From an uncultured Bacteroidales bacterium (GTDB taxonomy: Bacteria; Bacteroidota; Bacteroidia; Bacteroidales; P3): a DNA stretch of 43,388 nt. The notes under the pieces are model-generated. The model had not been told where the DNA came from and searched no databases. It saw only the letters and a list, made by a program, of their open reading frames with translations. The position numbers and the translations under genes were made by a program. This document shows, piece after piece, positions 8,670 through 37,657 of this stretch. The stretch covers positions 1 through 43,388 of the forward strand of contig CAMJJD010000011.1 in NCBI GenBank assembly GCA_946406015.1, read 5' to 3'. Numbering within the stretch: position 1 is the first letter of the stretch; each line of letters begins with the position of its first letter.

Positions 8670-8684
8670 GTTGTTGTTTGAAAA

Positions 8685-8750
8685 CTGAAAGTTGAAAGTT
8701 GAAAGAATACTGATGCGTCTGCAATTTCAACTTTCAACTTTCAACTTTCA
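8685..8750. repeat. GAAAGTT tract with complementary mirror tract (hairpin)
   Basis: Left arm 8685-8705 is three copies of the 7-mer TGAAAGT; right arm 8731-8750 is the complement, CTTTCAACTTTCAACTTTCA. They can pair over about 20 bases around a 25-base loop. It sits between ruvX and the tRNA gene, just downstream of the 3' end of the tRNA in the direction of transcription. Confidence 0.9.
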
Positions 8751-16967: not shown

Positions 16968-17112
16968 AAAAAAGTAGTAAATAAAAAAGTAGTAAAGCCG
17001 TAAAGGAGTAAAGATTTTAACCCTTAACCATTCATGCAATGTGGTCGACCAAAACATTTGTCTTAATTCCTTATCTCCTTTACTCCTTATCTCCTTTACT
17101 CCTTATCTCCTA
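16968..17112. repeat. Mirror-tract module (AAGGAGTAAAG arms)
   Basis: Left part has GTAGTAAA and GTAAAGGAGTAAAG units, the right part the complement, TCCTTTACTCCTTATC repeated to 17112. In the middle, ACATTTGTCTTAATTCC carries the TTGTCTTA core shared by the module family. No gene seen in 16955-17140. Confidence 0.8.
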
Positions 17113-25063: not shown

Positions 25064-25222
25064 AAAAACGGCGAATTACGCAAATTAAACGAAGCTACGC
25101 AGGTCAATTAAGAGCGAATTACTCGAATGCTGACGCATGCAAATGCCCCGACAATTCGAGTAATTAGCCTATAATTCAACACCTGCGCAAGCTTCGCGGA
25201 ATTCGTTCAATTCGCCGTTAAA
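25064..25222. repeat. Nested inverted-repeat element
   Basis: Three nested arm pairs: AACGGCGAATT (25067-25077) with AATTCGCCGTT (25209-25219); GAAGCTACGCAGGT (25091-25104) with ACCTGCGCAAGCTTC (25181-25195); AATTACTCGAAT (25117-25128) with ATTCGAGTAATT (25154-25165). The whole 160-base spacer between convergent genes can fold into one long imperfect hairpin. No coding potential seen. It could act as a bidirectional terminator or be a MITE-like element. Confidence 0.8.
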
Positions 25223-25227
25223 AAAGG

Positions 25228-26745: not shown

Positions 26746-27462
26746 ATGGAAGGACAGGGCACATACGACGTGATGCTTCGGTGCTGTGACGAGGAGGTGA
26801 AAGCCGACGCCGCCGAGGTGCAGCGTGTGCTGACACGTCACAAGCTCTCCTACAGGGAACAGGGTCTCGAATGGATACGGTTGTCGCACGAGCACTGTGA
26901 CCCGGCATGGATGGAGTTGTGCCGCCAGAAGGCGCGCCAGATGGTCGATGCTCGGGAGGAGGAACGCGAGCTGCTGGCGGCATTGGGCGTCGGCGTCGAT
27001 TTTGCGTCGACGCCGGAGGGGGTGCAACGGCCCGTCGACACGTTGGCGGAACGCCATTTTACATGGGTGGCGAAGCAGCCGAAGGTGGTGGTGGAGATGG
27101 TCAGCGGCGGCATCATGAACCTGGCGCGTGGCGGCTTCATCAGCGACGACATGGAGCAGCAGGCCGCCCTGCGGCGCGGTCTGGGCATCGCCCTGAACGC
27201 CGCCGAGCGCACGAGCCGGGCGCCGTGGCTCTACTGGCTGGGCGGCGACTCGGGGCTGCACTACCTCATCAAGAGCCTGTGGGACATGCACCTGATATAC
27301 TGCAGCGGCGGCGAGCGCGACAAGTGGAAGACGGTGTGCGGCTTTGTGCTGCATGCCGACGGCAGCCGCTACGAGCCCAAGCTCAGGGCCTGCTCGCGTG
27401 CCGGCGAGCAGACGCGCCGCGCCATCGACGACGCGATGCTCAAGGGGCTGAGGTATGTTTGA
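26746..27462 (+). CDS. Hypothetical protein
   Basis: A 238-residue soluble protein: acidic/basic helical N-terminal half (residues 1-90, with CRQKARQMVDAREEERELLA) and a second half with MVSGGIMNLARGGFISDDME and APWLYWLGGDSGLHYLIKSLWDMHLIYC. No signal peptide or membrane segment. I do not recognise the family. The second half resembles, loosely, proteins that pair with a plasmid- or phage-encoded HTH protein, and the divergent neighbour is one, but that link is weak. Followed by 427 bases of repeat. Confidence 0.65.
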   Translation: MEGQGTYDVMLRCCDEEVKADAAEVQRVLTRHKLSYREQGLEWIRLSHEHCDPAWMELCRQKARQMVDAREEERELLAALGVGVDFASTPEGVQRPVDTLAERHFTWVAKQPKVVVEMVSGGIMNLARGGFISDDMEQQAALRRGLGIALNAAERTSRAPWLYWLGGDSGLHYLIKSLWDMHLIYCSGGERDKWKTVCGFVLHADGSRYEPKLRACSRAGEQTRRAIDDAMLKGLRYV

Positions 27463-27635
27463 GGAGTAAAGGAGTAAAGGAGTAAAGGAGTTGAGGAGAT
27501 AAGGAGTAAAGGAGAAAAGGAGTAAAGGAGAAAAGGAGTAAAGGAGTTGAGGAGATAAGGAGATAAGGAGATAAGGAGACAGTAGATAAGGAGTAAAGGA
27601 GTTGAGGAGATAAGGAGTTAAGATAATGGTTGTTA
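27463..27635 (+). repeat. GGAGTAAA octamer array
   Basis: About 18 units of 8 bases, all starting GGAG: GGAGTAAA, GGAGTTGA, GGAGATAA and GGAGAAAA in mixed order. One unit is expanded around 27578-27592. No spacers of unique sequence, so not a CRISPR array. The array begins at the stop codon of the gene before it. Confidence 0.95.
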
Positions 27636-27637
27636 TT

Positions 27638-27782
27638 GGGGAGTTAAAGAAGTTAAAGGAATTTATCGCGCTTCGCGCTAGAAGTTAAAGACAATAGCAT
27701 CGGCTGGAACATTTGTCTCTAACTTCTTTAACTTCTTTAACTTCTTTAACTTCCATTTTAACTTCCATAATTGACTTCTTTG
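27638..27782. repeat. Mirror-tract module, copy A
   Basis: GGGAGTTAAAGAAGTTAAAG, then GAATTTATCG, CGCTTCGCG, CTAGAAGTTAAAGACAA (27679-27694), a spacer of 18 bases, TTGTCTCTAACT (27713-27724) and TTCTTTAAC 9-mers to 27747. Arms 27683-27694 and 27713-27724 pair with one mismatch. Together with the octamer array it fills the whole 27463-27785 interval; no gene seen. Confidence 0.9.
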
Positions 27783-27847
27783 ACATCTCTACCTACTTTT
27801 CAAGAAAAATATGTCTTGGCGCAGGAATTTTATTGGGGAAACGGTTG

Positions 27848-27855
27848 TAATTTTG
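27848..27855 (+). promoter_or_regulatory. -7 box of the small lipoprotein gene
   Basis: TAATTTTGCA, TAnnTTTG with GCA extension, 35 bases before ATG 27890. Confidence 0.7.
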
Positions 27856-27889
27856 CAATCGGAAACAAACAATAAAAACTACTGCTACA

Positions 27890-28300
27890 ATGAAACGTTT
27901 ACATCTGATAATGATTGCGCTGGCTTCGCTGCTGGCTTTTGCATCGTGCGAAGAGGAGGAAGGATGGTACATGCCCACGGGTATGTGGGTGATGCTCGAC
28001 GACTACGGCAACACGCTGCCGACAACGCTGTCCTTCAGTGGTGCCACCTTGGCGGTGCAGAATGCCTCCGACTACCACGACTGGCCCGCCGCCGACGCGG
28101 TGTATGAATACTATGTCAACGATGCCAACGTGCTGAAGATTAGTTTTGAGTATGAATACTACGACGGCGAGGAGTATGTCACCACGAGCGACAGCTACAA
28201 CTTCAGTATGACGCTGACCCACGAAGGGACACAGATGATACTCTCCTACGACCCGTGGATCGGTTCAGCCCGCCGCTATTACTTCCAGCGGTTGGTGTGA
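27890..28300 (+). CDS. Small acidic lipoprotein
   Basis: A 136-residue lipoprotein, lipobox LLAFASC (Cys20) followed by EEEEG. The mature part is rich in Tyr and Asp with beta pattern (GWYMPTGMWVMLDDYGN, YEYYDGEEYVTTSDSYNFS), suggesting a lipocalin-like or small barrel domain as in several Bacteroidetes lipoproteins of the DUF5004/lipocalin type. No known function. The Glu-rich residues after Cys may act as a surface-export signal, as known for Bacteroidetes lipoproteins. Own promoter. Confidence 0.75.
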   Translation: MKRLHLIMIALASLLAFASCEEEEGWYMPTGMWVMLDDYGNTLPTTLSFSGATLAVQNASDYHDWPAADAVYEYYVNDANVLKISFEYEYYDGEEYVTTSDSYNFSMTLTHEGTQMILSYDPWIGSARRYYFQRLV

Positions 28301-28349
28301 ACGTGAATGGTTGATTTTGAACGTGAATTGCCGTGAATTGGCCGTTAAT

Positions 28350-28426
28350 GGGAGTTAAAGAAGTTAAAGGAATTTATCGCGCTTCGCGCTAGAAGTTAAA
28401 GACAATAGCATCGGGCGGAACAATTG
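28350..28426. repeat. Mirror-tract module, copy B (left half)
   Basis: Nearly identical to 27638-27716 over about 75 bases, then diverges at AACAATTGCGG and runs into REP palindromes, so only the left half is present. Confidence 0.9.
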
Positions 28427-28431
28427 CGGAG

Positions 28432-28557
28432 CCCCGTAGGGGCGACATTATTTAGCCGTGGGTGTTAACCCACGGACAAGAAATGAAGGAAAAAAAGGGA
28501 GCCCCGGAGGGGCGACACAAAGACCGGCGTGGATTGGTGTGTCGCCCCTCCGGGGCT
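28432..28557. repeat. GC-rich REP-like palindromes
   Basis: AGCCCC-GTA-GGGGC near 28432, CCGTGGGT-GTTA-ACCCACGG near 28456-28475, and a 20-base perfect inverted repeat AGCCCCGGAGGGGCGACACA (28500-28519) with its complement (28538-28557). Type known from many Bacteroidetes genomes as dispersed small palindromes. Confidence 0.85.
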
Positions 28558-28573
28558 GGTAAAAGACAAAAGG

Positions 28574-28605
28574 GAAGGGCCCGCGCAGCGGGCCCTTCCT
28601 CTTTC
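28574..28605. terminator. Strong hairpin, probable bidirectional terminator
   Basis: GAAGGGCCCGC / GCGGGCCCTTC with loop GCA, followed by CTCTTT, between convergent genes. Confidence 0.65.
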
Positions 28606-28613
28606 GCATTTAG

Positions 28614-28770
28614 GAGGTAAGGAGATAAGGAGTTAAGAAGTTAAGAAGTTAAGGAGTTAAGACAAATGTGACAGCTGCAGTATTGTCTTATCTCCTTATC
28701 TACTGTCTCCTTATCTCCTTCGTTGAAGAGTCAAAGAGTTAATTTCAACTTTTAACTTTCAACTTTCAAC
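28614..28770. repeat. Mirror-tract module, copy C
   Basis: Left tract of AAGGAGATAAGGAGTTAAG-type octamers, core TAAGACAA (28658-28665), 17-base spacer, TTGTCTTA (28683-28690), then complementary TCTCCTTA octamers and a TTTCAACTTTCAAC tail next to the stop codon of the minus gene. The full interval 28301-28776 is repeats and palindromes without a gene. Confidence 0.9.
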
Positions 28771-28776
28771 TTTCCG

Positions 28777-29505
28777 TTATTCCGCCATCTGGCGATAACG
28801 GTCGACCTCGCCCTGGACGTTGTTGACGTTCTGGTTGGCGGCGTCGACTTTCTTCTCGGCATCGCCGCGCTTGCCCTGCTCTTTCTCGATCTCGGACTGC
28901 AGTTTCTTGATGTCTTTCTCGCAGTCTTTGATTTTCTGCTGGTAGTTCTTGATGTCCTTCTCTTTGTCGGCTATCTTCTGCTGCTTCTTGGCGATGGCTT
29001 TGTCGATGGCGGCAGCCTGCTTGGCGGCTTTGTCGGCAGCTTTCTGGGCCTTGTCGAGGTTCTTCTGCTGGGCTTTCATGTTGAGGCCGGCTTCATAGCG
29101 GTCGACATAGGAGGCGAAGCCCTGGAGCCAGCGGAGGGCGCCGGCACGCATGGCGCTGGGGTCGTTCATGGCCAGGTTGCTGCTGAGGGCGCAGACGCTG
29201 ACGACGGCCTCGTTCTTTTTCTTTTTCTCGACGAGGGTGTAGAAGTTGATGTCGCTGATGGCGATTTCCTCGATGAAGGCGTTGGCGCAGACGTAGTAGC
29301 CCTGCTCGTCCTTCTGGGGTTTCAGTTTGGAGTCCTTGAGGTACTGGATCATGGCGTCCTGCACCATCTTGTGGTCTTTCTGCAGCGTGACGGTGGCAGC
29401 GGGGACGGTGAGGCCACCCACCTGGAGGGTGCTCTCGCTGACGGACTGGGCGGCGAGACCGAGGGTCATCAGAGCCGCGACGGCAAAGGTAAAGATTTTT
29501 TTCAT
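28777..29505 (-). CDS. Periplasmic coiled-coil protein of unknown function
   Basis: A 242-residue protein with a signal peptide (MKKIFTFAVAALMTLGLAAQ). Residues 21-140 form a small domain (VGGLTVPAATVTLQKDHKMV), and residues ~145-240 are a Lys/Asp/Glu/Gln-rich coiled coil (QQKIADKEKDIKNYQQKI). No recognised family. Could be a periplasmic scaffold or envelope-associated protein. It shares its strand with the RND operon but is separated by a mirror-tract module. Confidence 0.8.
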   Translation of the reverse strand: MKKIFTFAVAALMTLGLAAQSVSESTLQVGGLTVPAATVTLQKDHKMVQDAMIQYLKDSKLKPQKDEQGYYVCANAFIEEIAISDINFYTLVEKKKKNEAVVSVCALSSNLAMNDPSAMRAGALRWLQGFASYVDRYEAGLNMKAQQKNLDKAQKAADKAAKQAAAIDKAIAKKQQKIADKEKDIKNYQQKIKDCEKDIKKLQSEIEKEQGKRGDAEKKVDAANQNVNNVQGEVDRYRQMAE

Positions 29506-29541
29506 AATGGTATGTTTTTATGGGTTGAATTTCTTTATTTT

Positions 29542-29680
29542 GGGAGTTAAAGAAGTTAAAGGGAGTTATCGCTCGCTGCACTCGCTAGAAGTTATAGACA
29601 ATACCTTCTGTAGGCAAAAGATGCTATATAAACATTTGTCTTTAACTACTTAACTACTTTAACTTCTTTAACTACTTGGT
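29542..29680. repeat. Mirror-tract module, copy D
   Basis: GGGAGTTAAAGAAGTTAAAG, TTATCG, CTCGCTGCACTCG, CTAGAAGTTATAGACA, 36-base spacer, TGTCTTTAACT (29637-29647), then TACTTTAAC 9-mers. Fills the whole gap to the stop of the PII-like gene. Confidence 0.9.
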
Positions 29681-29681
29681 C

Positions 29682-29975
29682 TCAGACCATCTGCTCGATG
29701 TTCCAGACGAAGGCGCGGATGCCGACTTCCTCGTTGCGCTTGTCGAGCTTGCGGACGGAGAGGAGCAGTTCGTCGACCTTGTCGTCGGGGATGACGGTGA
29801 GGATGGCGTTGTTGAGTTCGGGCCAGGTGTGGGTACCGCGGTGGGGATCTCCGTTGTCGTGGCCACGGCCTTGCACGTTCTCCCAGAAGGTGAATCCACG
29901 GATGCCAAGGGTGTCGAGCATATACTCGGCACGTTCGTTGTTGGCTTGGTTGTAGACGATTAGGACACTTTTCAT
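29682..29975 (-). CDS. PII-like (nitrogen regulatory protein-like) protein
   Basis: A 97-residue protein of the PII/CutA-like ferredoxin-fold superfamily. MKSVLIVYNQANNERAEYML, RGFTFWENVQGRGHDNGDPH and WPELNNAILTVIPD correspond to strand 1, the T-loop-like region and strand 3 of a PII-type sensor subgroup found in Bacteroidetes. Last gene of the efflux operon; such small PII-like proteins frequently accompany RND or other transporter genes and may bind nucleotides or metals to adjust them. Ligand unknown. Confidence 0.72.
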   Translation of the reverse strand: MKSVLIVYNQANNERAEYMLDTLGIRGFTFWENVQGRGHDNGDPHRGTHTWPELNNAILTVIPDDKVDELLLSVRKLDKRNEEVGIRAFVWNIEQMV

Positions 29976-29992
29976 ATCTTCTCTTTTTGGGG

Positions 29993-30118
29993 TATTTAAA
30001 GAAGTTAAGGAAGTTATCGCTCGCTTTGCTCGCTAGTAGTTAAAGACAAATGTACCAGACGGCGCTAATGTCTTTAACTACTTTAACTACTTTAACTACT
30101 TTGACTACTTTAACTACT
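29993..30118. repeat. Mirror-tract module, copy E
   Basis: GAAGTTAAGGAAG, TTATCG, CTCGCTTTGCTCG, CTAGTAGTTAAAGACA (arm 30038-30048), 20-base spacer, TGTCTTTAACT (arm 30069-30079), then TACTTTAAC 9-mers that end in the RND stop codon. Confidence 0.92.
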
Positions 30119-33100
30119 TATTTTCATTCAAATCAATTTTCATAAACACAAACTTGCGGCGTTCGCGTTCCTTCTTCTCGATGTCGCCGCGGCGGTTGAA
30201 GACGCCGTAGAGGACGGGCACGACGATGAGGGTGACGAAGGTGGAGACGGTGAGGCCGCCGATGACGACGAGGCCCATGGTGGTCCACATCTCGGAGCCT
30301 TCGGAGTTGGAGGTGGCCATAGGTATCATGCCGAGGATGGTGGTGAAGGCCGTCATGAGGACGGGACGCATACGGCTCTGGCCGCTGATGGCGATGGCCT
30401 CGTTGAGGGCGATGCCGCGTTCGCGCATGAGGTTGATATAGTCGACCAGCACGATACCGTTCTTCACCACGATGCCGATGAGGAGCACGAGGCCGAGCAT
30501 GCCAATCATATCGATGTTCTGTCCGGTGAAGAACATCATCAGCGAGACGCCGCTGATGGCGAAGGGGATGGAGAACATGATGATGAAAGGTTTGCTGAAA
30601 GACTCGAACTGCGAGGCCATGACGATGTAGACGAGCATGAGGATGAGTGCGGCGAGCATGAGCATGTCGCGCGTGGAATCCTGCTGGTCCTTGTAGTTAC
30701 CGGCCAGAGCCACGTGCACGTCGGACGGCACGCCCATGGCGTCGATCTCCTTCTGCACGTTGAGGGCGAGTTCCTGGAGCGAGGTGCGGTAGGGCATGAC
30801 GGTGAGGGTGAGGTAGCGCTGGCGGTTTTTGCGCTCGATGGTGGGCGGGCACCAGTATTCCTCGATGGTGCCGATTTCCTCGAGCTTCACCAACGCACCG
30901 GTAGCGGTGGGGATGGAGAGCTGCTCGATGTCGGAGATGGCGTCGCGGTATTCCTCGCGGAGGCGTACCACGATGTTGTATTCCTCGCCGTCTTCCTTGA
31001 GGAATCCGGCCGACATGCCGTTGACGCGGTTGCGGACGTAGAGGGCCACGGTGCTCTCGTTGAGGCCGTGGAGGGCGAGTTTCTGCTTGTCGAGTTCAAT
31101 CTTGAGTTCGGCGCGGTCTTCGTCGCGGCTGATTTTGGTGTCGCGGGCGCCTGGCACGTTGTCCATCACGCGCTGGCGCAGCTTCTGGGTGAAGTTGGTG
31201 GTCTGGTCGAAGTCGTAGCCGTAGATCTCGACGGAGAGCGAGTTGTTGGAGCCGCCGCCCATGCCGCCGCCGCTGTTGACCTGGTAGTTGACGATCTCGG
31301 GGTACTCGGCGAAGCACTGGCGCAGCACCTCCTGCATCTCGAAGATGGTGCGTTTGCGCTCGTACTTCTTGGTGGTGCGCACCGTCATGGAAATCTTGTT
31401 GTTGGTGGTGCTGTTGAAGAGGGCTGCCATGCCGGCGTCGTCGTTGGAGCCGGCCGAAGTGGAGACGACGATGACGTCGTCGCCGAGGAGACGGTAGATG
31501 TCTTCCTCCATGTGGCGTGCGGTCTTGAGGGTCTCCTCGATGCGGGTGCCTCGTTGCAGCTCGGCGTTGATGCTCATACGTCCGTTGTCCTGCTCTTTCA
31601 TGAAGTCCATGCCTATCTTGCCGGAGAAGAAGGGGAGGAGGGAGACGATGAAGAAGGCGAGGGCGATGAGGAGGGTGACCTTCTTGTGGCCGAGGCACCA
31701 GCGGAGCACGTTGGCGTAGCCGGCCTCGATGGCGTTGAAGGTGCGGGTCACGGTGCGGTTGTAGAGGTTGCGCTCGCGTTTGCGGTTGTAGGCTTCCTCG
31801 TCCTCCTTCTTGAAGAAGAAGGGACGCTCCTTGAGCATGCGTGAGGAGAGCATGGGGATGAGGGTGATGGCGGCGGTGGTGGAGACGCACACCACGATGG
31901 TGACGATCCAGCCGAGCTCCTTCATGAAGATGCCCATCATGCCGGGGAGCATGGTGAGGGGTACGAAGACGGCCACGAGCACCAGGGTGGTGGCGATGAC
32001 GGAGGTCCACACCTCGTTGGTGGCGCAGATGGCGGCCTCGCGCGGGTTCTCGCCGCGTTCTATATGCTTGGTGATATTTTCGAGCACCACGATGGCATCG
32101 TCGACGACCATGCCGATGGCCACGGTGAGGGATGCCAGGGAGATGATGTTGAGCGAGCTGTCGGCCAGGAGGAGGTAAATGAAGGAGGTGACGAGGGAGA
32201 TGGGGATGGTGAGTGCGATGACGAGGGTGGAGCGCCAGTTGCCGAGGAAGAGGAGCACCACGAGGATGACGAAGAGGAGGGCGTAGAAGATGGACTCGGT
32301 GAGGCCGTTGATGGCGTTGATGATGTTGTCGGAGCCGTCGTTGATGAGCGTGATCTCGATGTCGGGCGGCAGGGTCTTCTGGATGCGTTCCATCTCTTTC
32401 TTCACCTCGCGGGCGATGGCCACGGTGTTGGCGCCGGTCTGCTTGGTGATGATGAGGCGGGCGCCGTCCTGACCGTTGATCTTCTCGTCGAGGGAGAGGT
32501 CCTTGATGGTGTCGCGTACGGTGGCGAGGTCGCGCACAAAGACCTGCTTGCCAGTATATGTGGTTGTCACCACGATGTCGGCGATTTCGGAGCTCTCGAC
32601 ATATTCACCCTTGACGCGCATCTGGTACTGTTCCTTGCCCATCTTGACGGTGCCGGAGGCCAGGTCGAGGTTGTTGGCCGAGATGGCGTTGCCGACCAGC
32701 TCGAGGGGGATGCCGTAGGCGTCGAGCTGCTTGGGGTCGAGGTCGATATAGACGTAGCGCTCGGGGGCACCGCTGACGGTGATGTTGCCGATGCCGTCGA
32801 TACGGTTGAGCTCGTTGACCACGTTGTCCTCCAGGATGCGGTCAAGGCCGGAGTAGGACTCCTTGGCGGTGAAGCCGTACATCATGATGGGCATGGCGCT
32901 GGAGTTGAGCTTGAGGATCATGGGGCGGCTCACTCCGTCGGGCAGGTTGTCGTAAAGCAGGTCGACGTAGGAGCGGATGTCGTTGAGTGCCTCGTCGATA
33001 TCGGAACCCCACTCGAACTCGAGGGAGACGACGGAGATGTTGTCGCGCGAGTTGGAGGTGATGTTCTTAAGGCCGTCGACGCTGTTGAGCGAGTTCTCGA

Positions 33101-33299
33101 CCAGCTTGGTGATGTTGGTCTCTATCTCGCTGGCGTTGGCGCCGGCGTAGGTGGTCATGACGGTGACGTAGGGCGGGTCCATCTCGGGCATCTGGTCGAT
33201 AGGCAGCCGCGAGAGGGAGAAGAGGCCCAGCACGATGACGGCCACGAAGATAAGGCCGGTGGTGATGGGTCGGTTGATTGCTGTTTTATAGATGGCCAT
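30114..33299 (-). CDS. RND efflux pump inner-membrane transporter (HAE1/AcrB family)
   Basis: Proton-driven exporter of drugs or other amphiphiles; it works as a trimer with the adaptor and TolC-like channel encoded upstream. The 1061-residue protein has the full layout: TM1 (TTGLIFVAVIVLGLFSL), two large periplasmic loops, and TM4 with TVAIGMVVDDAIVVLENITK, which carries the paired Asp residues of the proton relay; FTGQNIDMIGMLGLVLLIGI and SGQSRMRPVLMTAF follow. Substrate cannot be told. The stop codon lies in the last unit of a repeat module. Confidence 0.95.
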   Translation of the reverse strand: MAIYKTAINRPITTGLIFVAVIVLGLFSLSRLPIDQMPEMDPPYVTVMTTYAGANASEIETNITKLVENSLNSVDGLKNITSNSRDNISVVSLEFEWGSDIDEALNDIRSYVDLLYDNLPDGVSRPMILKLNSSAMPIMMYGFTAKESYSGLDRILEDNVVNELNRIDGIGNITVSGAPERYVYIDLDPKQLDAYGIPLELVGNAISANNLDLASGTVKMGKEQYQMRVKGEYVESSEIADIVVTTTYTGKQVFVRDLATVRDTIKDLSLDEKINGQDGARLIITKQTGANTVAIAREVKKEMERIQKTLPPDIEITLINDGSDNIINAINGLTESIFYALLFVILVVLLFLGNWRSTLVIALTIPISLVTSFIYLLLADSSLNIISLASLTVAIGMVVDDAIVVLENITKHIERGENPREAAICATNEVWTSVIATTLVLVAVFVPLTMLPGMMGIFMKELGWIVTIVVCVSTTAAITLIPMLSSRMLKERPFFFKKEDEEAYNRKRERNLYNRTVTRTFNAIEAGYANVLRWCLGHKKVTLLIALAFFIVSLLPFFSGKIGMDFMKEQDNGRMSINAELQRGTRIEETLKTARHMEEDIYRLLGDDVIVVSTSAGSNDDAGMAALFNSTTNNKISMTVRTTKKYERKRTIFEMQEVLRQCFAEYPEIVNYQVNSGGGMGGGSNNSLSVEIYGYDFDQTTNFTQKLRQRVMDNVPGARDTKISRDEDRAELKIELDKQKLALHGLNESTVALYVRNRVNGMSAGFLKEDGEEYNIVVRLREEYRDAISDIEQLSIPTATGALVKLEEIGTIEEYWCPPTIERKNRQRYLTLTVMPYRTSLQELALNVQKEIDAMGVPSDVHVALAGNYKDQQDSTRDMLMLAALILMLVYIVMASQFESFSKPFIIMFSIPFAISGVSLMMFFTGQNIDMIGMLGLVLLIGIVVKNGIVLVDYINLMRERGIALNEAIAISGQSRMRPVLMTAFTTILGMIPMATSNSEGSEMWTTMGLVVIGGLTVSTFVTLIVVPVLYGVFNRRGDIEKKERERRKFVFMKIDLNENK

Positions 33300-33302
33300 G
33301 TT

Positions 33303-33336
33303 TTAAAGTGAAAAGTGAAAAGTGAAAGGTGAAATT
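33303..33336. repeat. AAAGTGAAAAGTG tract
   Basis: Four units of the 9-base GTGAAAA type right upstream of the RND start codon. Confidence 0.8.
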
Positions 33337-33365
33337 ATTATTTTCATCTCTCGCTTTTCCATAGG

Positions 33366-33724
33366 TTATACATTTAATTTTGATTTGATTTTGGTAATAA
33401 TTGATGTTAGAAGTGCTATGAGTTCTTTGACATCGTTGTTCATTGAAGTGTATTCTGTTTCCTCGATGATGTTTGACATGTAAAGAACGTCAAGCCAATA
33501 CTGTGTTTCGTCAGCTTCTTTCAATGCAATTGAAAGTTTGTGAATATAATCGGAACTGCTTTCGGCGTTTTGCTCTCGCGAATATTGGCACCAATGCTGG
33601 TACCGCTGCGCAGCAACTGTTTGCTGATGACAAACTCTTTCTTTTGTTCGGAAAGGAATCTATAGAAGTTTACTGTGCGAACAGCAAAAAGCAGGCTCTT
33701 GTCATGTAGCATGTTGCCGGTCAT
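33366..33724 (-). pseudogene. Four-helix-bundle protein (23S rRNA intervening-sequence protein family), frameshifted
   Basis: The reading starts MTGNMLHDKSLLFAVRTVNF (or from GTG 33751) and continues through the family signature EFVISKQLLRSGTSIGANIRES. At the run of four A residues (minus strand AGCAAAACGCC, near 33568) the frame moves by one base. The second half, NAESSSDYIHKLSIALKEAD and TQYWLDVLYMSNIIEETEY then a lysine-rich end (ITKIKSKLNV), is intact in the other frame to a TAA at 33366-33368. Adding one A restores a typical 119-residue protein. The gene sits between the adaptor and the pump of the efflux operon, an unusual place. The shift may be decay, phase variation or sequencing error. 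Confidence 0.85.
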
Positions 33725-33740
33725 AACGTTTCCGATAATT

Positions 33741-33776
33741 TCACTTTTCACATTTCAATTTTCAATTTTCAACTAT
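33741..33776. repeat. TTTTCAA tract supplying the adaptor stop codon
   Basis: Seven-base TTTTCAA units. On the minus strand they code for the last residues (VEN) and stop codon of the adaptor and run into the start of the four-helix-bundle gene. Confidence 0.8.
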
Positions 33777-34802
33777 TTCAAGCGTTGCGCCGTCGACGAG
33801 GCGGGCTTGGCCCGTGACCACCAGCTGGTCGCCGGCCTTGAGGGCGTCGGCCTCGACGGGGATGATTTCGATGCGGTCGTCGAAGCGCTGGCCGAGGGTG
33901 ACGGCGACTCGGCGGGCGGTGCCGTTGTCATTAATGAATACGTAGCGGTCATTGCTGCCGGTGAGTTTGAGGACGCTCTGGTAGGGGACGACGATGGCGT
34001 CGACTTCACCCACGCCCAGACGGGTGCGGACATACATGCCGGGGCGGATCTTCTCGGAGGCGTTGGGGATGTTGAGTTTGGCCTGGAAGGTGTGGCTGGC
34101 GGCATCGATGGTGGGGTAGACAATCTCGATGGTGGCGGGGAAGACGGTGCCGGGGTAGATGTCGCTCTCCACCTCGACCTTCATGCCCTGCTTGACGAGC
34201 GGGAAGTAGGTCTCGGGGATATTGATGATGGCCTTGAGGCGGCTGATCTGTGTGAGGGTGAGGATGGGGGCGCCGGTGTACATCTCGCCGTCCTCGTAGT
34301 TCTTGGCGCTGATGACGCCGGCGAACTGGGCGCGGACGAAGGTGTTCTGATCCTGGAAGCGCTCGGTCTCGACGAGCTGGTCGTAGCCGGCCTTGGTCTG
34401 GTCGTAGACCTGTTGGCTGATGGAGCCGCTCTGCTTGAGGGCGCTGACGCGGTCGAACTCGGTCTTGGTGGAGGCCAGGTTGATGCGGGTGGTGTTGAGC
34501 TGGGTCTGGTCCATGCGGACGAGCATGGAGCCTTTCTGCACGCGGCTGCCCACCTCGACATAGATGTGCTCGATATGTCCTGTGATGGAGGGCGAGATGT
34601 TCATGGTCTCGTAGCCTTCGAGGGTGGAGGAGAGTTCGAGGGTCTTGGCGATGCGCTCGTTCTGGAGGGTGAGCACCTTGACGCGTTCGGCCTCTTTCTG
34701 GGTGGTGGTGGCGCCTTTGCTGTTGTCGCCACTTTTGCCGCCGCAGGCCGTAAGGGCTGCGACAGCCATGATAATCAACGATGATCTGAAAACTTTATTC
34801 AT
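33762..34802 (-). CDS. RND efflux periplasmic adaptor (membrane fusion protein)
   Basis: A 346-residue lipoprotein (lipobox ALTACGG, Cys20) of the HlyD/AcrA family. The order is beta-barrel, lipoyl and hairpin parts: NISPSITGHIEHIYVEVGSR and DGEMYTGAPILTLTQI are the two lipoyl halves, about residues 68-195, around a short coiled-coil hairpin. It bridges the pump and the TolC-like channel. Coded in the same minus-strand run, after TolC and before the pump. Confidence 0.93.
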   Translation of the reverse strand: MNKVFRSSLIIMAVAALTACGGKSGDNSKGATTTQKEAERVKVLTLQNERIAKTLELSSTLEGYETMNISPSITGHIEHIYVEVGSRVQKGSMLVRMDQTQLNTTRINLASTKTEFDRVSALKQSGSISQQVYDQTKAGYDQLVETERFQDQNTFVRAQFAGVISAKNYEDGEMYTGAPILTLTQISRLKAIINIPETYFPLVKQGMKVEVESDIYPGTVFPATIEIVYPTIDAASHTFQAKLNIPNASEKIRPGMYVRTRLGVGEVDAIVVPYQSVLKLTGSNDRYVFINDNGTARRVAVTLGQRFDDRIEIIPVEADALKAGDQLVVTGQARLVDGATLEIVEN

Positions 34803-34828
34803 AATTATAATGTTTATTCTTTATTTTG

Positions 34829-34972
34829 TAGTTACAGAAGTTAAAGTAGTTATCGCTTCGCTAGTTTAAGTGTTAAACGTTAAGTGTTAAGAGCTCTTTG
34901 ACCATTTATTTGACGCGGATAGGTGTTTGTCGCTAGTAGCAGTATTGTCTTATCTCCTTAACTCCCTATCTC
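34829..34972. repeat. Mirror-tract module, copy F (degenerate)
   Basis: GTTACAGAAGTTAAAGTAG, TTATCG, CTTCG, CTAGTTTAAGTGTTAAACGT, then a divergent middle and a right part, AGTATTGTCTTATCTCCTTA, that keeps the TTGTCTTA core. No gene seen in 34803-34972. Confidence 0.75.
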
Positions 34973-36364
34973 CTAATTATTCAGCAGGTTCTCGAGTGCT
35001 ATCTGGGCGGAGATGACGTTCATCACGGCCTGGATGTAGTTGCTCTGGGCCGAGATGATGTCGGTCGAGGCGTTGGTGACTTCGAGGCTGCTGGCGCGGC
35101 CATAGTTATATTTCTCGGTGATGTTGTTGAAGACGCGTTGTGTGACGTCGATGTTGCGGCGCTGGATGTCGTAGGTCTCGAGGGCCGAGGCAAGGTCGTA
35201 GCAGAGCTGGTTGTACTGCACGCGTAGGCCGTCTTCGGCCTGCTGGCGGTTGTTGAGGGCCTCCTGGTAGTCGATTTTGGCGCTCTTGAGGTTGGCCGCG
35301 CGGGTGCCGCTGCTGAAGAGGGGTAGGGAGAGCGAGGCGCCTATCATGTTGGGCGGCGTCATGTTGAAGCCTTCGTCGCGGCCGAAGTAGGTCTTGTTGC
35401 TGTATTGGTAGTAGGCCGAGAGGGTGGGGGCGAAGTCCATCCACGCCATGGTGACGTTCTTCTCGGCGAGTTTCTCGTTCTGCTCGAGGAGTTGGTAGCT
35501 GTAGTTCTTCGTGATGTCGAATCCGCGGCCCAGCAGGGCGGTGGCGTTGTCGACGCTGAGCAGTTCGTCGATGTTGGAGGTGAGCACGAGCTGTGCGTTG
35601 ACGTCGGCGCCTAGTTGCAGCAACATAGAGTTGCGGAGCATCTGGAGCGAGCGTTTGGTGCTGTTGATGCTGCTCTTGAGTTGAGCCACCTGCACCTGCA
35701 GCTTGTCGGCGTCGACTTGCTCGGCGGCGCCCACGTTGACAGCGGCCTGGCTGGTGGCGGCGAGGCGTTCGAGGTTGGCGAGCGAGGAGTCGAGGAGGCC
35801 CACGGTCTGTTCCATGGCCAGGATGCTGACGTAGATGTTTTTCACGTTGGCACGGGTGGTCTGTTCGGTCTGTTGGCGGCTGATGTCGGTCATGTCCATG
35901 GCGATGTTCTGCAGCATGGTTCCGACAATCTGGGCGCCGGTAAGGGCGATGGAGGCGGTGATGCTGAAGGTGCCGCTGGGGTTCATGGCGATGCCGTCGT
36001 CGCTGGAGCTGGACTCGCTGCCGCTTGAGGGAAACGAGATGGGCATGGTCATACCGCCGATGGTGATGGAGTCGGGCATCATGGACATCATGCTGCCGCC
36101 ACCGCCGAAGTGCATCTTGTAGCCACACATGTTCTGGTAGTCGAATCCCGCCTTCACCTGCGGAAGCATGGTGCTGAGGGTCTTCCAGCGGCTGAGCTCG
36201 GCCTTCTTCACGTCGAGGTCGGCATTCTGCATGGCGGCGTTGTGCTCGACGGCATACTGCTGGGCCTCGGCGAGGCTCAGCCGCAGCACGGGCTGTTCCT
36301 GTGCCGCAGCCATCAGGCCGAAAGCCATCAGTGTCATTGTCAGGGTTATTCTTTTCAGTGTCAT
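34973..36364 (-). CDS. TolC-like outer-membrane efflux protein
   Basis: A 463-residue protein with a signal peptide (...MAFGLMAAAQ) and the duplicated helical-barrel pattern of the OEP family: NAAMQNADLDVKKAELSRWK and ...NNRQQAEDGLRVQYNQLCYD, then SLEVTNASTDIISAQSNYIQ near the end. It forms the outer-membrane channel of the tripartite pump. The insert GGGGSMMSMMPDSITIGGMT around residues 86-105 is Met/Gly-rich and not typical; similar inserts are seen in some Bacteroidetes OEPs. Confidence 0.93.
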   Translation of the reverse strand: MTLKRITLTMTLMAFGLMAAAQEQPVLRLSLAEAQQYAVEHNAAMQNADLDVKKAELSRWKTLSTMLPQVKAGFDYQNMCGYKMHFGGGGSMMSMMPDSITIGGMTMPISFPSSGSESSSSDDGIAMNPSGTFSITASIALTGAQIVGTMLQNIAMDMTDISRQQTEQTTRANVKNIYVSILAMEQTVGLLDSSLANLERLAATSQAAVNVGAAEQVDADKLQVQVAQLKSSINSTKRSLQMLRNSMLLQLGADVNAQLVLTSNIDELLSVDNATALLGRGFDITKNYSYQLLEQNEKLAEKNVTMAWMDFAPTLSAYYQYSNKTYFGRDEGFNMTPPNMIGASLSLPLFSSGTRAANLKSAKIDYQEALNNRQQAEDGLRVQYNQLCYDLASALETYDIQRRNIDVTQRVFNNITEKYNYGRASSLEVTNASTDIISAQSNYIQAVMNVISAQIALENLLNN

Positions 36365-36395
36365 CTATTATAGATAATTATGTTTACATTATTAT

Positions 36396-37031
36396 TTATT
36401 TCACTTCAAGCTCTTCCATCACTTGGCGGAAGTGGGGTTCCGACTCCTCGTAGCGTTTGATAGTGTCGGTCGACATGAGACCGCGGAGGTAGGTGAAGCA
36501 AATCTCGTTGAGGCGGTGGAGGTAGGTTTTTTGGTCGTCGACATCGGAGAGGCGGTGTTGCTGGATGAGGTCGCAGAGGAAGTCGACGGCCACGTCGATG
36601 TCGGCGTCGGGGCGCAGGTAGTTGTGTTGCTGCACGTATTCCATGCCATGGTGCATCATGGTGTGGAGCGCCTCGGTGTGGAGGCGGAAGAAGCGGTCGT
36701 GGATTTCAGGATAGTAGCGTTCGGCTTCGTCGAGCAGACGGCGGTAGCGGTGGTTGCTGTCGGCCCCGACGCGCAGCATGTACATGGCCACCAGCAGGGG
36801 TTCGTCGACCTTGCTGTGTGCCTGACGGTGCATCTCGTTGAGGCGGTCGTGGACCTGCATGAGGCATTCGGCCAGGAGCTCCTCCTTGTTGGCGAAGGTC
36901 TCGTAGAGGGTGCGTTTCGAGATATGGAGCGACTGGGCGATGTCGTCCATCGTCACTCCGCGGCAACCGCGCGAGTTGAACATCTGCAACGCAGTCTCCA
37001 CTATTTTTTCTTTTATTTCTTCTGTGGCCAC
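36396..37031 (-). CDS. TetR-family transcription repressor
   Basis: A 211-residue protein: N-terminal HTH (TMDDIAQSLHISKRTLYETF, residues ~25-45) and a helical ligand-binding domain. GTG 37031 (VATEEIKEKIVETALQ) is chosen because GGAAG lies just upstream; a GTG at 37067 would add 12 residues. It begins the efflux operon 31 bases upstream of the TolC gene, in the same direction, so it probably represses the operon it belongs to and is relieved by a pump substrate. Confidence 0.88.
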   Translation of the reverse strand: MATEEIKEKIVETALQMFNSRGCRGVTMDDIAQSLHISKRTLYETFANKEELLAECLMQVHDRLNEMHRQAHSKVDEPLLVAMYMLRVGADSNHRYRRLLDEAERYYPEIHDRFFRLHTEALHTMMHHGMEYVQQHNYLRPDADIDVAVDFLCDLIQQHRLSDVDDQKTYLHRLNEICFTYLRGLMSTDTIKRYEESEPHFRQVMEELEVK

Positions 37032-37104
37032 TTTTCTTCCAATCCTTTGAATTGTAAACGATAACACGTGATTCTTTGTGTATTATACGGCTTCAAAGGC
37101 GGTG

Positions 37105-37112
37105 CAAAGATA
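37105..37112 (-). promoter_or_regulatory. -7 box of the efflux operon
   Basis: Minus strand reads TATCTTTGCACC, perfect TAnnTTTG with GCA extension, about 70 bases before the TetR start. Confidence 0.72.
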
Positions 37113-37115
37113 CAG

Positions 37116-37151
37116 AAAACTCCGAAAACGTTTCTGGTTTTCGGAGTTTTT
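37116..37151 (-). terminator. Terminator downstream of yajC
   Basis: AAAACTCCGAAAAC / GTTTTCGGAGTTTT with a 7-base loop and T runs on both strands. It separates yajC transcripts from the efflux promoter a few bases further on. Confidence 0.8.
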
Positions 37152-37169
37152 GTAGTGTTAAATAAACTT

Positions 37170-37369
37170 AATGAGTGGAAGAGTGGAAGAGTGGAAGAGT
37201 GACAGAGTGGAAGAGTTGAAGAGTGACAGAGTGGAAGAGGTCATTAACCATTAACCATTACCCATTACCCCAAGCAGTGCATTTGTCTTTAACTTCTAGT
37301 GAGCGGAGCGAACGATCAATTCTTTAACTTCTTTAACTTCCATAATCTTTAACCATTAACCGTTAACCA
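37170..37369. repeat. GAGTGGAA octamers, ATTAACC 7-mers and mirror-tract module, copy G (inverted)
   Basis: About eight GAGTGGAA/GAGTGACA units (37172-37240), ATTAACC units (37242-37270 and 37352-37376), and between them the left half of the module in reverse orientation: minus strand GTTAAAGAATTGATCG, TTCGCTCCGCTCA, CTAGAAGTTAAAGACAA. No gene seen in 37113-37369. Confidence 0.88.
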
Positions 37370-37657
37370 TTAACCATTCTTCCGTTCGGGGATAGGCTGG
37401 AGGGTGGCGAGCTGCACTTTCATACGCACGCCGGGGGCGGCTTCAACGGTGGCCATGCCGTGGTCGGCGCTGACGAAGGTGACATGCACGCCGCCGGCGG
37501 TCATCACGCGGTCTCCGTTCTTGAGGCTTTCGCGGTAGGCGGCTTCTTTCTTGGTTTTGTCGCTCTGGGGTTTGATGAGGAAGAAATAGAATACGGCAAT
37601 CATTGCCACAATCATGATGGCGGTCTTCCAGCCATTGGCGATGTCGAGTAGTAGCAT
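37370..37657 (-). CDS. yajC: Preprotein translocase accessory protein YajC
   Basis: A 95-residue protein with one membrane segment (TAIMIVAMIAVFYFFLIKPQ, residues ~12-31) followed by a Lys-rich stretch and the conserved small beta domain with LKNGDRVMTAGGVHVTF. It is part of the SecDF-YajC complex that assists Sec export. The end is reached inside an ATTAACC tract. Confidence 0.95.
   Translation of the reverse strand: MLLLDIANGWKTAIMIVAMIAVFYFFLIKPQSDKTKKEAAYRESLKNGDRVMTAGGVHVTFVSADHGMATVEAAPGVRMKVQLATLQPIPERKNG

What the first reader, a model, noticed from the sequence alone, without database searches (positions are those of the whole stretch)
27638..37340. A dispersed mirror-tract module with a conserved TTAAAGACAA / TTGTCTTTAA core in spacer after spacer
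Seen directly: copies at 27638-27782, 28350-28426 (left half), 28614-28770, 29542-29680, 29993-30118, 34829-34972 (degenerate) and 37282-37340 (inverted, left half), with a related one at 16968-17112. Shared order: tandem GTTAAAGAA 9-mers (or GGAG octamers), TTATCG, a small CGC..GCG hairpin of differing sequence, CTAGAAGTTAAAGACAA, a spacer of 17-36 bases, TTGTCTTTAAC, then complementary tandem units. The arms pair into a long hairpin while the 17-36-base apex differs in most copies, much like a cargo or guide. Known REPs are shorter and have a fixed loop. Inference: a non-autonomous hairpin element family, perhaps moved by a Y1/RAYT enzyme, or a structured RNA family.
Basis: partly seen in the sequence, partly recalled or inferred. 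Interest (0 to 1): 0.85.

Follow-up and report, generated by a model that had tools for sequence, protein, structure and literature searches.

The report
Self-mirroring intergenic hairpin repeat family
Short hairpin-shaped DNA repeats are scattered between genes of some gut and rumen bacteria, and their two arms keep matching each other even though the arm sequence differs between species and copies, which points to a spreading repeat kept palindromic by copying one arm onto the other.

Summary
The repeats are real. The window holds four full copies (27638, 28614, 29542, 29993), two half copies (28350, 37282) and two decayed ones. A covariance model finds the family in 50 of 120 genomes of the host genus and 7 of 15 of a second genus, but in 5 of 393 genomes drawn across the order. 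Anatomy: purine-rich 8-12 bp tandem units, an optional CGC insert, GACAAATG, a variable apex, TATTGTC, then the complementary units. Units differ between species and copies (GGAGTTAAAG, GGAGTGCAAG, GGAGATAAGG and others), yet the arms covary. The same junctions lack the element, and are sometimes almost spacerless, in relatives. One window copy shares even its apex with a copy elsewhere in the genome: copies spread, and the apex looks like a drifting loop rather than a guide. A Y1/RAYT enzyme is not supported. RNA-level selection is not supported, though that test is small. Best reading: a non-autonomous intergenic hairpin repeat with unknown mobiliser, its arms homogenised in DNA by template switching. 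New variant of a known kind.

The parts
27638..27757 (-). Full copy 1 (Y side left, X side right): 9-mer arms, CGC insert 27663-27681, Y core GACAATAG 27690-27697, apex, X core (complement) CATTTGTC 27710-27717
   Evidence: read; model hit 27676-27731 at 66.2 bits; fold z -8.3
28350..28425 (-). Half copy (Y arm, CGC insert, Y core and apex); right arm missing
   Evidence: apex close to copy 1, score 13 against shuffled maximum 5; no model hit
28612..28725 (+). Full copy 2, octamer arms; GACAAATG 28661-28668, TATTGTC 28681-28687
   Evidence: 45 bits; fold z -5.9
29541..29680 (-). Full copy 3; Y core GACAATAC 29597-29604, X core (complement) CATTTGTC 29633-29640; apex paralogous to the copy at contig C8:5982
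   Evidence: 61.1 bits; 85% to the C8 copy; apex score 19 against shuffled maximum 7; fold z -4.0
29991..30120 (+). Full copy 4 between an AcrB-family gene and a P-II-like gene; GACAAATG 30045-30052, TAATGTC 30067-30073; the AcrB-family stop codon (30114-30116, CTA = TAG) lies in an array unit
   Evidence: 58.6 bits; no recognisable copy in 32 of 40 orthologous spacers; fold z -5.7
34829..34972 (.). Decayed copy: TTATCGCTTCGCTAG insert and a TATTGTCTTA core end remain
   Evidence: no hairpin (z +0.5); no model hit; no intact core in the 26 relatives printed for this spacer, though G098 and G050 keep arm-like arrays (by reading)
37280..37345 (-). Half copy, X arm with CGC-type insert, set between CATTAAC heptamer arrays
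   Evidence: no fold (z +3.2); not seen in the 17 relatives printed for this spacer (by reading)
16968..17112 (-). Decayed relative: X core CATTTGTC 17055-17062 with GGAG-type octamers
   Evidence: fold z -3.6; no model hit

Best explanation
This is a family of non-autonomous, palindromic intergenic repeats. Shown: a short two-sided core (GACAAATG ... TATTGTC) is carried by complementary arms of 8-12 bp tandem units; nearly all classified copies sit downstream of a stop codon; it is scattered over many gene junctions, is present or absent at the same junction between related species, and occurs at two loci with a common apex. Inferred: (1) an unidentified enzyme acting in trans, or a recombination process, copies the element to new junctions; (2) the arms lengthen and shorten by slippage; (3) when the nascent strand folds back on the core during replication, one arm is used as template for the other. 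Step 3 would rewrite both arms alike, keep the hairpin while its sequence drifts, and leave the loop free to change. The element needs no product of its own; it persists because it lies between genes, where its arms can even supply a stop codon.
For: Arm covariation: 10 of 15 stem pairs show changes on both sides, 0 of 500 shuffles as high. On 122 distinct model-fitted rows, both strands included, 11 of 15 do (6 of 500 shuffles as high) with covariation score 0.335 against 0.122, 0 of 500. In the 18 armed loci found by a pattern that did not ask for it, the variable base of the first unit pairs as GC 8, AT 3, TA 2, GT 3, AC 2 (read). Other units are mirrored in both arms, with some mismatches. 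Common apex: window copy 3 and C8:5982, score 19 against shuffled maximum 7; the C8 copy is also at the same junction in G050. Turnover: at the P-II/AcrB junction 8 of 40 relatives carry a copy (7 model hits, G098 by reading) and 6 of 40 have genes overlapping by 4 nt, by reading. At G118 C4:304508 seven of nine relatives with both flanks have 5 bp or less, by reading. Location: 38 co-directional, 19 convergent, 3 divergent of 60 classified, against 102, 33, 36 of 171 background spacers of 100-600 bp, Fisher p = 0.004. DNA rather than RNA level: sense-strand mismatches GT 5, AC 15 (two-sided p 0.04).
Against: No transposase was linked to the family and no clear target-site duplication was found; the ends run into simple repeats. 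The longer-range mirror test on 22 pattern-selected copies was weak: ungapped 9, 18 and 27 nt not significant (p 0.36, 0.26, 0.17); local score 16.4 against a permuted mean of 13.2, but the largest of 10,000 permutations was 18.4. Inserts in one arm blur that test. The four window copies are not found by a plain hairpin scan. Gain and loss are not separated: C8:5982 is shared with G050 but absent in G085, which looks nearer to G000 at the AcrB locus. The wobble test is small, uses arms filtered for pairing, and is confounded by the element's own polarity (GT 29, AC 12 read X to Y over 56 copies). No orthologous pair was seen in which both arms changed while the apex stayed the same.
Confidence: 0.56

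Rival explanations
1. A REP/BIME system moved by a Y1 (RAYT) transposase: X and Y sides would be two inverted REPs with a linker.
For: Inverted two-unit design with a variable linker, small CGC insert, location after stop codons; this genome has one Y1 gene.
Against: Y1 presence independent of element presence, p = 0.57; genomes with 8 or more element matches and no Y1 match: G098, G047, G086, G085, G019, G073, G110 (several are incomplete drafts). The Y1 gene of G000 is flanked by GCCCCTGCGGGGC-type palindromes and not by this element (by reading). No conserved head beside the insert: GTAG in copy 4, GAAG in copies 1 and 3.
Confidence: 0.06
2. A selected RNA structure (3' end stabiliser, processing signal or bidirectional terminator) whose stem is kept by compensatory mutation.
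For: 57 of 60 classified copies lie downstream of at least one stop codon; strong folds of the full copies; purine-rich left and pyrimidine-rich right arm on both strands.
Against: On the mRNA strand of 32 co-directional copies, GT mismatches (5) are fewer than AC (15); RNA selection predicts the reverse, but see the confounding named above. Relatives do without it at the same junctions. No Rfam match at gathering scores. The terminator scan accepts only loops of 3-8 bases and so cannot judge these stems.
Confidence: 0.18
3. No mobility: simple-repeat slippage plus template switching repeatedly makes look-alike palindromes in spacers.
For: The same spacers hold unrelated tandem arrays and palindromes with other cores in other species.
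Against: The two-sided core, and often the CGC insert, recur at unrelated junctions and in two families of the order, and within the genus with different arm units; one apex is shared by two loci. Chance recurrence is not expected (reversed-pattern controls 1 and 0 in total).
Confidence: 0.13
4. The apex is a cargo or guide sequence.
For: Apex of 15-38 nt that varies between copies.
Against: Some apexes are related between loci of the genus, and at one shared junction the apex differs between species (G118 and G002). The core pattern has no viral-contig match and copy 1 has no plasmid or phage match, although the low-complexity filter may hide such a query. Apexes were not searched singly.
Confidence: 0.03

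Closest known systems
BrickBuilt MITE of Porphyromonas gingivalis (PMC4596501; abstract and found passages read)
   Same: Bacteroidales, intergenic, 19 copies in one strain, tandem-repeat minisatellite inside predicted long stem-loops, filled and empty sites
   Different: BrickBuilt has 23-nt direct repeats between a leader and tail, 12-nt terminal inverted repeats like those of IS5-family ISPg elements; here the tandem units are the two arms themselves, 8-12 bp, centred on a conserved core
REP/BIME with RAYT (PMC2817692, passages read; PMC3733652, abstract start and one passage seen)
   Same: Intergenic, palindromic, dispersed, two inverted units with a linker
   Different: No RAYT association found, long arms of variable tandem units, no transposase gene flanked by the element seen
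TAACTGA intergenic direct repeats (PMC4679880; abstract and passages read)
   Same: Short-unit arrays in spacers, units that give stop codons, patchy spread including Bacteroidetes, no mechanism evident
   Different: Direct heptamers of one fixed sequence, in the main genome studied mostly just upstream of start codons; no core and (one case apart) no inverted second arm
Template switching at inverted repeats (PMC8794818, PMC8604942; abstract starts seen in a search listing only)
   Same: Homogenises the arms of inverted repeats and can make and maintain hairpins
   Different: A mutational process, not an element; here it is invoked for arms made of tandem units
Correia, ERIC, BOX and other bacterial MITE-like repeats (recalled, not tested)
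   Same: Small dispersed palindromic intergenic repeats
   Different: Fixed arm sequences, other hosts

Membership tests
REP/BIME-RAYT | Associated Y1 (PF01797) gene flanked by the same repeats | tested here: not met
   G000's single Y1 match is flanked by another palindrome; no association over 120 genomes. Flanks of Y1 genes in the other genomes were not inspected.
REP/BIME-RAYT | 20-40 bp palindrome with a conserved tetranucleotide head (GTAG or CGTC) | tested here: not met
   By reading only: arms are tandem arrays, and the letters beside the insert vary (GTAG in copy 4, GAAG in copies 1 and 3)
MITE | Short, non-coding, multi-copy, inverted repeats | tested here: met
   in the fetched loci of three genomes no protein family recurs within 3 kb of the copies, apart from four matches that are weak, local or lie next to each other
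MITE | Filled and empty sites | tested here: met
   direction of change not proven
MITE | Target-site duplication of fixed length | tested here: inconclusive
   AATATG-like and TTATTT-like direct repeats at two junctions by reading, none obvious at two others
MITE | Parent transposon with matching ends | not tested
   No insertion-sequence library was searched; only Y1 was sought
Structured RNA | Covariation with G-U tolerated on the transcript | tested here: inconclusive
   Covariation present, but AC 15 against GT 5 on the sense strand; small and confounded by element polarity
Structured RNA | Transcript detected | not testable with these tools
   No RNA-seq at hand
Integron attC | RYYYAAC ... 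GTTRRRY boxes beside gene cassettes | tested here: not met
   Polarity is the reverse (GTTAAAG ... CTTTAAC) by reading; motif recalled, not from a call

The most novel reading that the evidence does not exclude
A minimal mobile hairpin whose only inherited part is the core. An unknown enzyme or replication-linked process rewrites the arms with whatever short tandem unit is current in that lineage and then mirrors them, so that the element spreads and stays palindromic with no conserved ends. Other mirrored arrays with different cores in the same spacers would be products of the same process.
Probability: 0.15. Interest if true: 0.8.

Novelty: new variant of a known kind. Interest (0 to 1): 0.5.

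Why it matters
It gives a natural series in which the arms of a palindrome differ in sequence together across related species, a test bed for whether template switching rather than selection maintains hairpins in bacterial genomes. It also shows tightly coupled gene pairs that in other species stand 100-200 bp apart, and it names a repeat family that could confuse annotation and assembly of Bacteroidales genomes. I did not find it in print: paper searches, in an open-access library that holds no bioRxiv preprints and misses most subscription journals.

Tried and rejected
Rejected: RAYT, a known Rfam RNA (gathering scores), sigma-70 promoter (0 found in 27400-30200; a Bacteroides-type -7 box was considered by eye from recall and does not hold in many copies), attC site (reading), cargo gene between copies (no recurring protein of note in the loci of three genomes), carriage by virus, plasmid or phage (nothing, with the low-complexity filter as a caveat). 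The terminator scan cannot see these long-loop stems, so a terminator role is not excluded by it. The longer ungapped mirror test failed. A five-sequence alignment included a wrongly placed G050 stretch and was not used as evidence. Of the 21 genome-collection loci, L046, L054 and L056 lack arms and were dropped as chance. Of 39 places (control 3), six in L046, L054, L066 and L071 were dropped and one window copy was added by hand to give the 34. Of 76 distinct places in the 128 model rows, 72 were kept; three dropped were duplicates of kept places, one a third tandem copy in L202. In one search, 16 of those 72 failed the core or pairing filter or were duplicates; the filter favours paired arms. 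In one search, five copies fell in an ORF and seven at contig edges; the three 'divergent' cases rest on ORFs that overlap the element. Orthologous copies were not removed from these counts.
Full report
OBSERVATION. The window is a whole contig (C11) of a 2.2 Mb, 80.6% complete draft genome in 124 contigs. The core TTAAAGACAA with up to one mismatch occurs 12 times against 1.4 expected. Reading searches gives four full copies, two halves and two decayed copies. The four full copies fold with z -8.3, -5.9, -4.0 and -5.7; the decayed copy at 34829 and the half at 37282 do not fold (z +0.5 and +3.2), and the decayed 16968 copy folds weakly (z -3.6). A plain scan for hairpins with arms of at least 18 lists four hairpins in the window, none of them these copies: inserts and indels interrupt the arms.

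ANATOMY. Read from X to Y the full form is: tandem units (GGAGTTAAAG type), an optional insert TTATCGC..GCTAG in one or both arms, GACAAATG, an apex, TATTGTC or CATTGTC, and the complementary units. The left arm is purine-rich and the right arm pyrimidine-rich on either strand. The insert can lie on the X side, the Y side or both.

DISTRIBUTION. The covariance model R1 finds 50 of 120 genomes of the host genus at E <= 0.01, up to 27 matches in G118; matches on the two strands of one place are counted apart, and G000 has 18 matches, at 12 places that the listings name. A draw of 393 genomes of the order gives 5 positive genomes in 2 of 206 genera. The second genus has 7 of 15. A draw over the phylum gives the own genome and one borderline match (E 5.8e-4) of 395. 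Strict filters were used, so these are lower bounds. Some weak matches may be other palindromes (for example tandem ones in G086).

ARMS COVARY. In 34 aligned copies 97.3% of cells pair and 10 of 15 pairs show double changes, with 0 of 500 shuffles as high; 33 of these were chosen with at least 9 of 12 arm positions paired, so the percentage is inflated. On 122 distinct model-fitted rows the covariation score is 0.335 against 0.122 in shuffles, 0 of 500 as high, while the count of double-changed pairs (11) was reached by 6 of 500. The unbiased subset is the 18 pattern-selected loci: the variable unit base pairs as GC 8, AT 3, TA 2, GT 3 and AC 2, by reading. Arms built of other units (GGAGTGCAAG in G070 and G019, GGAGTGAGAG in G008 and G007, GGAGATAAGG in G077) are complementary too, with some mismatches, round the same core. 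A permutation test on 22 pattern-selected copies gave p = 0.003 for the three bases next to the core, but longer ungapped stretches were not significant, and the local-alignment gain (16.4 against 13.2) did not exceed every permutation. Copies without the insert (L047, L050, L058) repeat private unit variants on both sides, by reading of the same output.

TURNOVER. At the P-II/AcrB junction of the window, 40 relatives were compared: 8 carry a copy (7 of them model hits, G098 by reading), 6 have genes overlapping by 4 nt, and the others carry short spacers or unrelated arrays and palindromes (by reading; gene families). In the window genome the AcrB-family stop codon lies within an array unit. 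In four further spacers content also differs between species; at one of them (33300-33761) the window has no copy but G095 has one, and at the copy-3 spacer G080 has a half-like array. At G118 C4:304508 the relative G002 also has a copy, with different arms and apex, while seven of nine relatives with both flanks have 5 bp or less and G098 has a short spacer; at G118 C12:3807 six of ten have 0-1 bp, two have a copy and two have other sequence. Possible short target duplications were seen at two junctions only.

COPYING BETWEEN LOCI. Window copy 3 (29542-29680) is 85% identical to the copy at C8:5982, and their apexes align with score 19 against a shuffled maximum of 7. The C8 copy is at the same junction in G050, whereas the copy-3 junction has none in G085, G050 and G126. 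This shows spread of the unit with its apex, not its direction.

LOCATION. Of 72 model places, 60 could be classified with a crude ORF caller: 38 co-directional, 19 convergent, 3 divergent, the last three resting on ORFs that overlap the element; background spacers of 100-600 bp gave 102, 33 and 36 (Fisher p = 0.004).

MECHANISM. A Y1 transposase match is present in 32 of 50 element-positive and 41 of 70 element-negative genomes (p = 0.57), and the only one here is flanked by GCCCC-type palindromes. On the mRNA strand of 32 co-directional copies there are 351 Watson-Crick, 5 GT, 15 AC and 13 other cells (two-sided p 0.04 for 5 against 15), which is not what selection on an RNA stem would leave. 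Over all 56 copies read X to Y the counts are GT 29 and AC 12, so the asymmetry belongs in part to the element's own polarity and the test is only suggestive. I therefore favour arm-to-arm copying in DNA, as described for template switching at inverted repeats (PMC8794818 and PMC8604942, abstract starts seen in the listing), plus dispersal by an unknown agent. The first is inferred from the pattern; the second is shown as an outcome only.

NOVELTY. Dispersed palindromic intergenic repeats are well known. Arms made of changing tandem units that covary round a conserved core are not described in the parts of papers I saw.

Noticed in passing
28430-28475 (- strand) and 28500-28557: Rfam Acido-Lenti-1 match (51 bits) and a neighbouring GCCCC/GGGGC hairpin. 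The genome's single Y1 transposase (L157 667-1113) is flanked by GCCCCTGCGGGGC palindromes that look similar by eye, so Acido-Lenti-1 may be part of a RAYT/REP system; another match lies in L169 at 7096. L157 itself has no Acido-Lenti-1 match.
   Followed up: partly
8679-8750 and loci L107, L117, L134, L145: Other palindromes with tandem-unit arms but different centres, some holding GGCTGACGC or CTGCGTAGC-like letters.
   Followed up: no
25064-25225; L115 9625-9794: A different palindromic repeat in the window matches, on both strands, the repeat (AACGGCGAATT ends) that fills the P-II/AcrB spacer in G085.
   Followed up: no
29506-29681, 33300-33761, 34803-34972, 37068-37375 and orthologous spacers: The same junctions hold unrelated 7-10 bp arrays (TTCTAGA, CAATTCT, TTTCCTAGG and others) in different species: rapid turnover of spacer arrays in general.
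   Followed up: partly
33300-33761: A stretch of about 400 bp between short arrays, present or absent as a block among relatives; the longest ORFs confined to it in the window are 78 and 76 codons, so it may be a broken short gene.
   Followed up: no
1-144: 18-bp tandem repeat TGCCTAATCCTGCTAGTG at the contig start.
   Followed up: no
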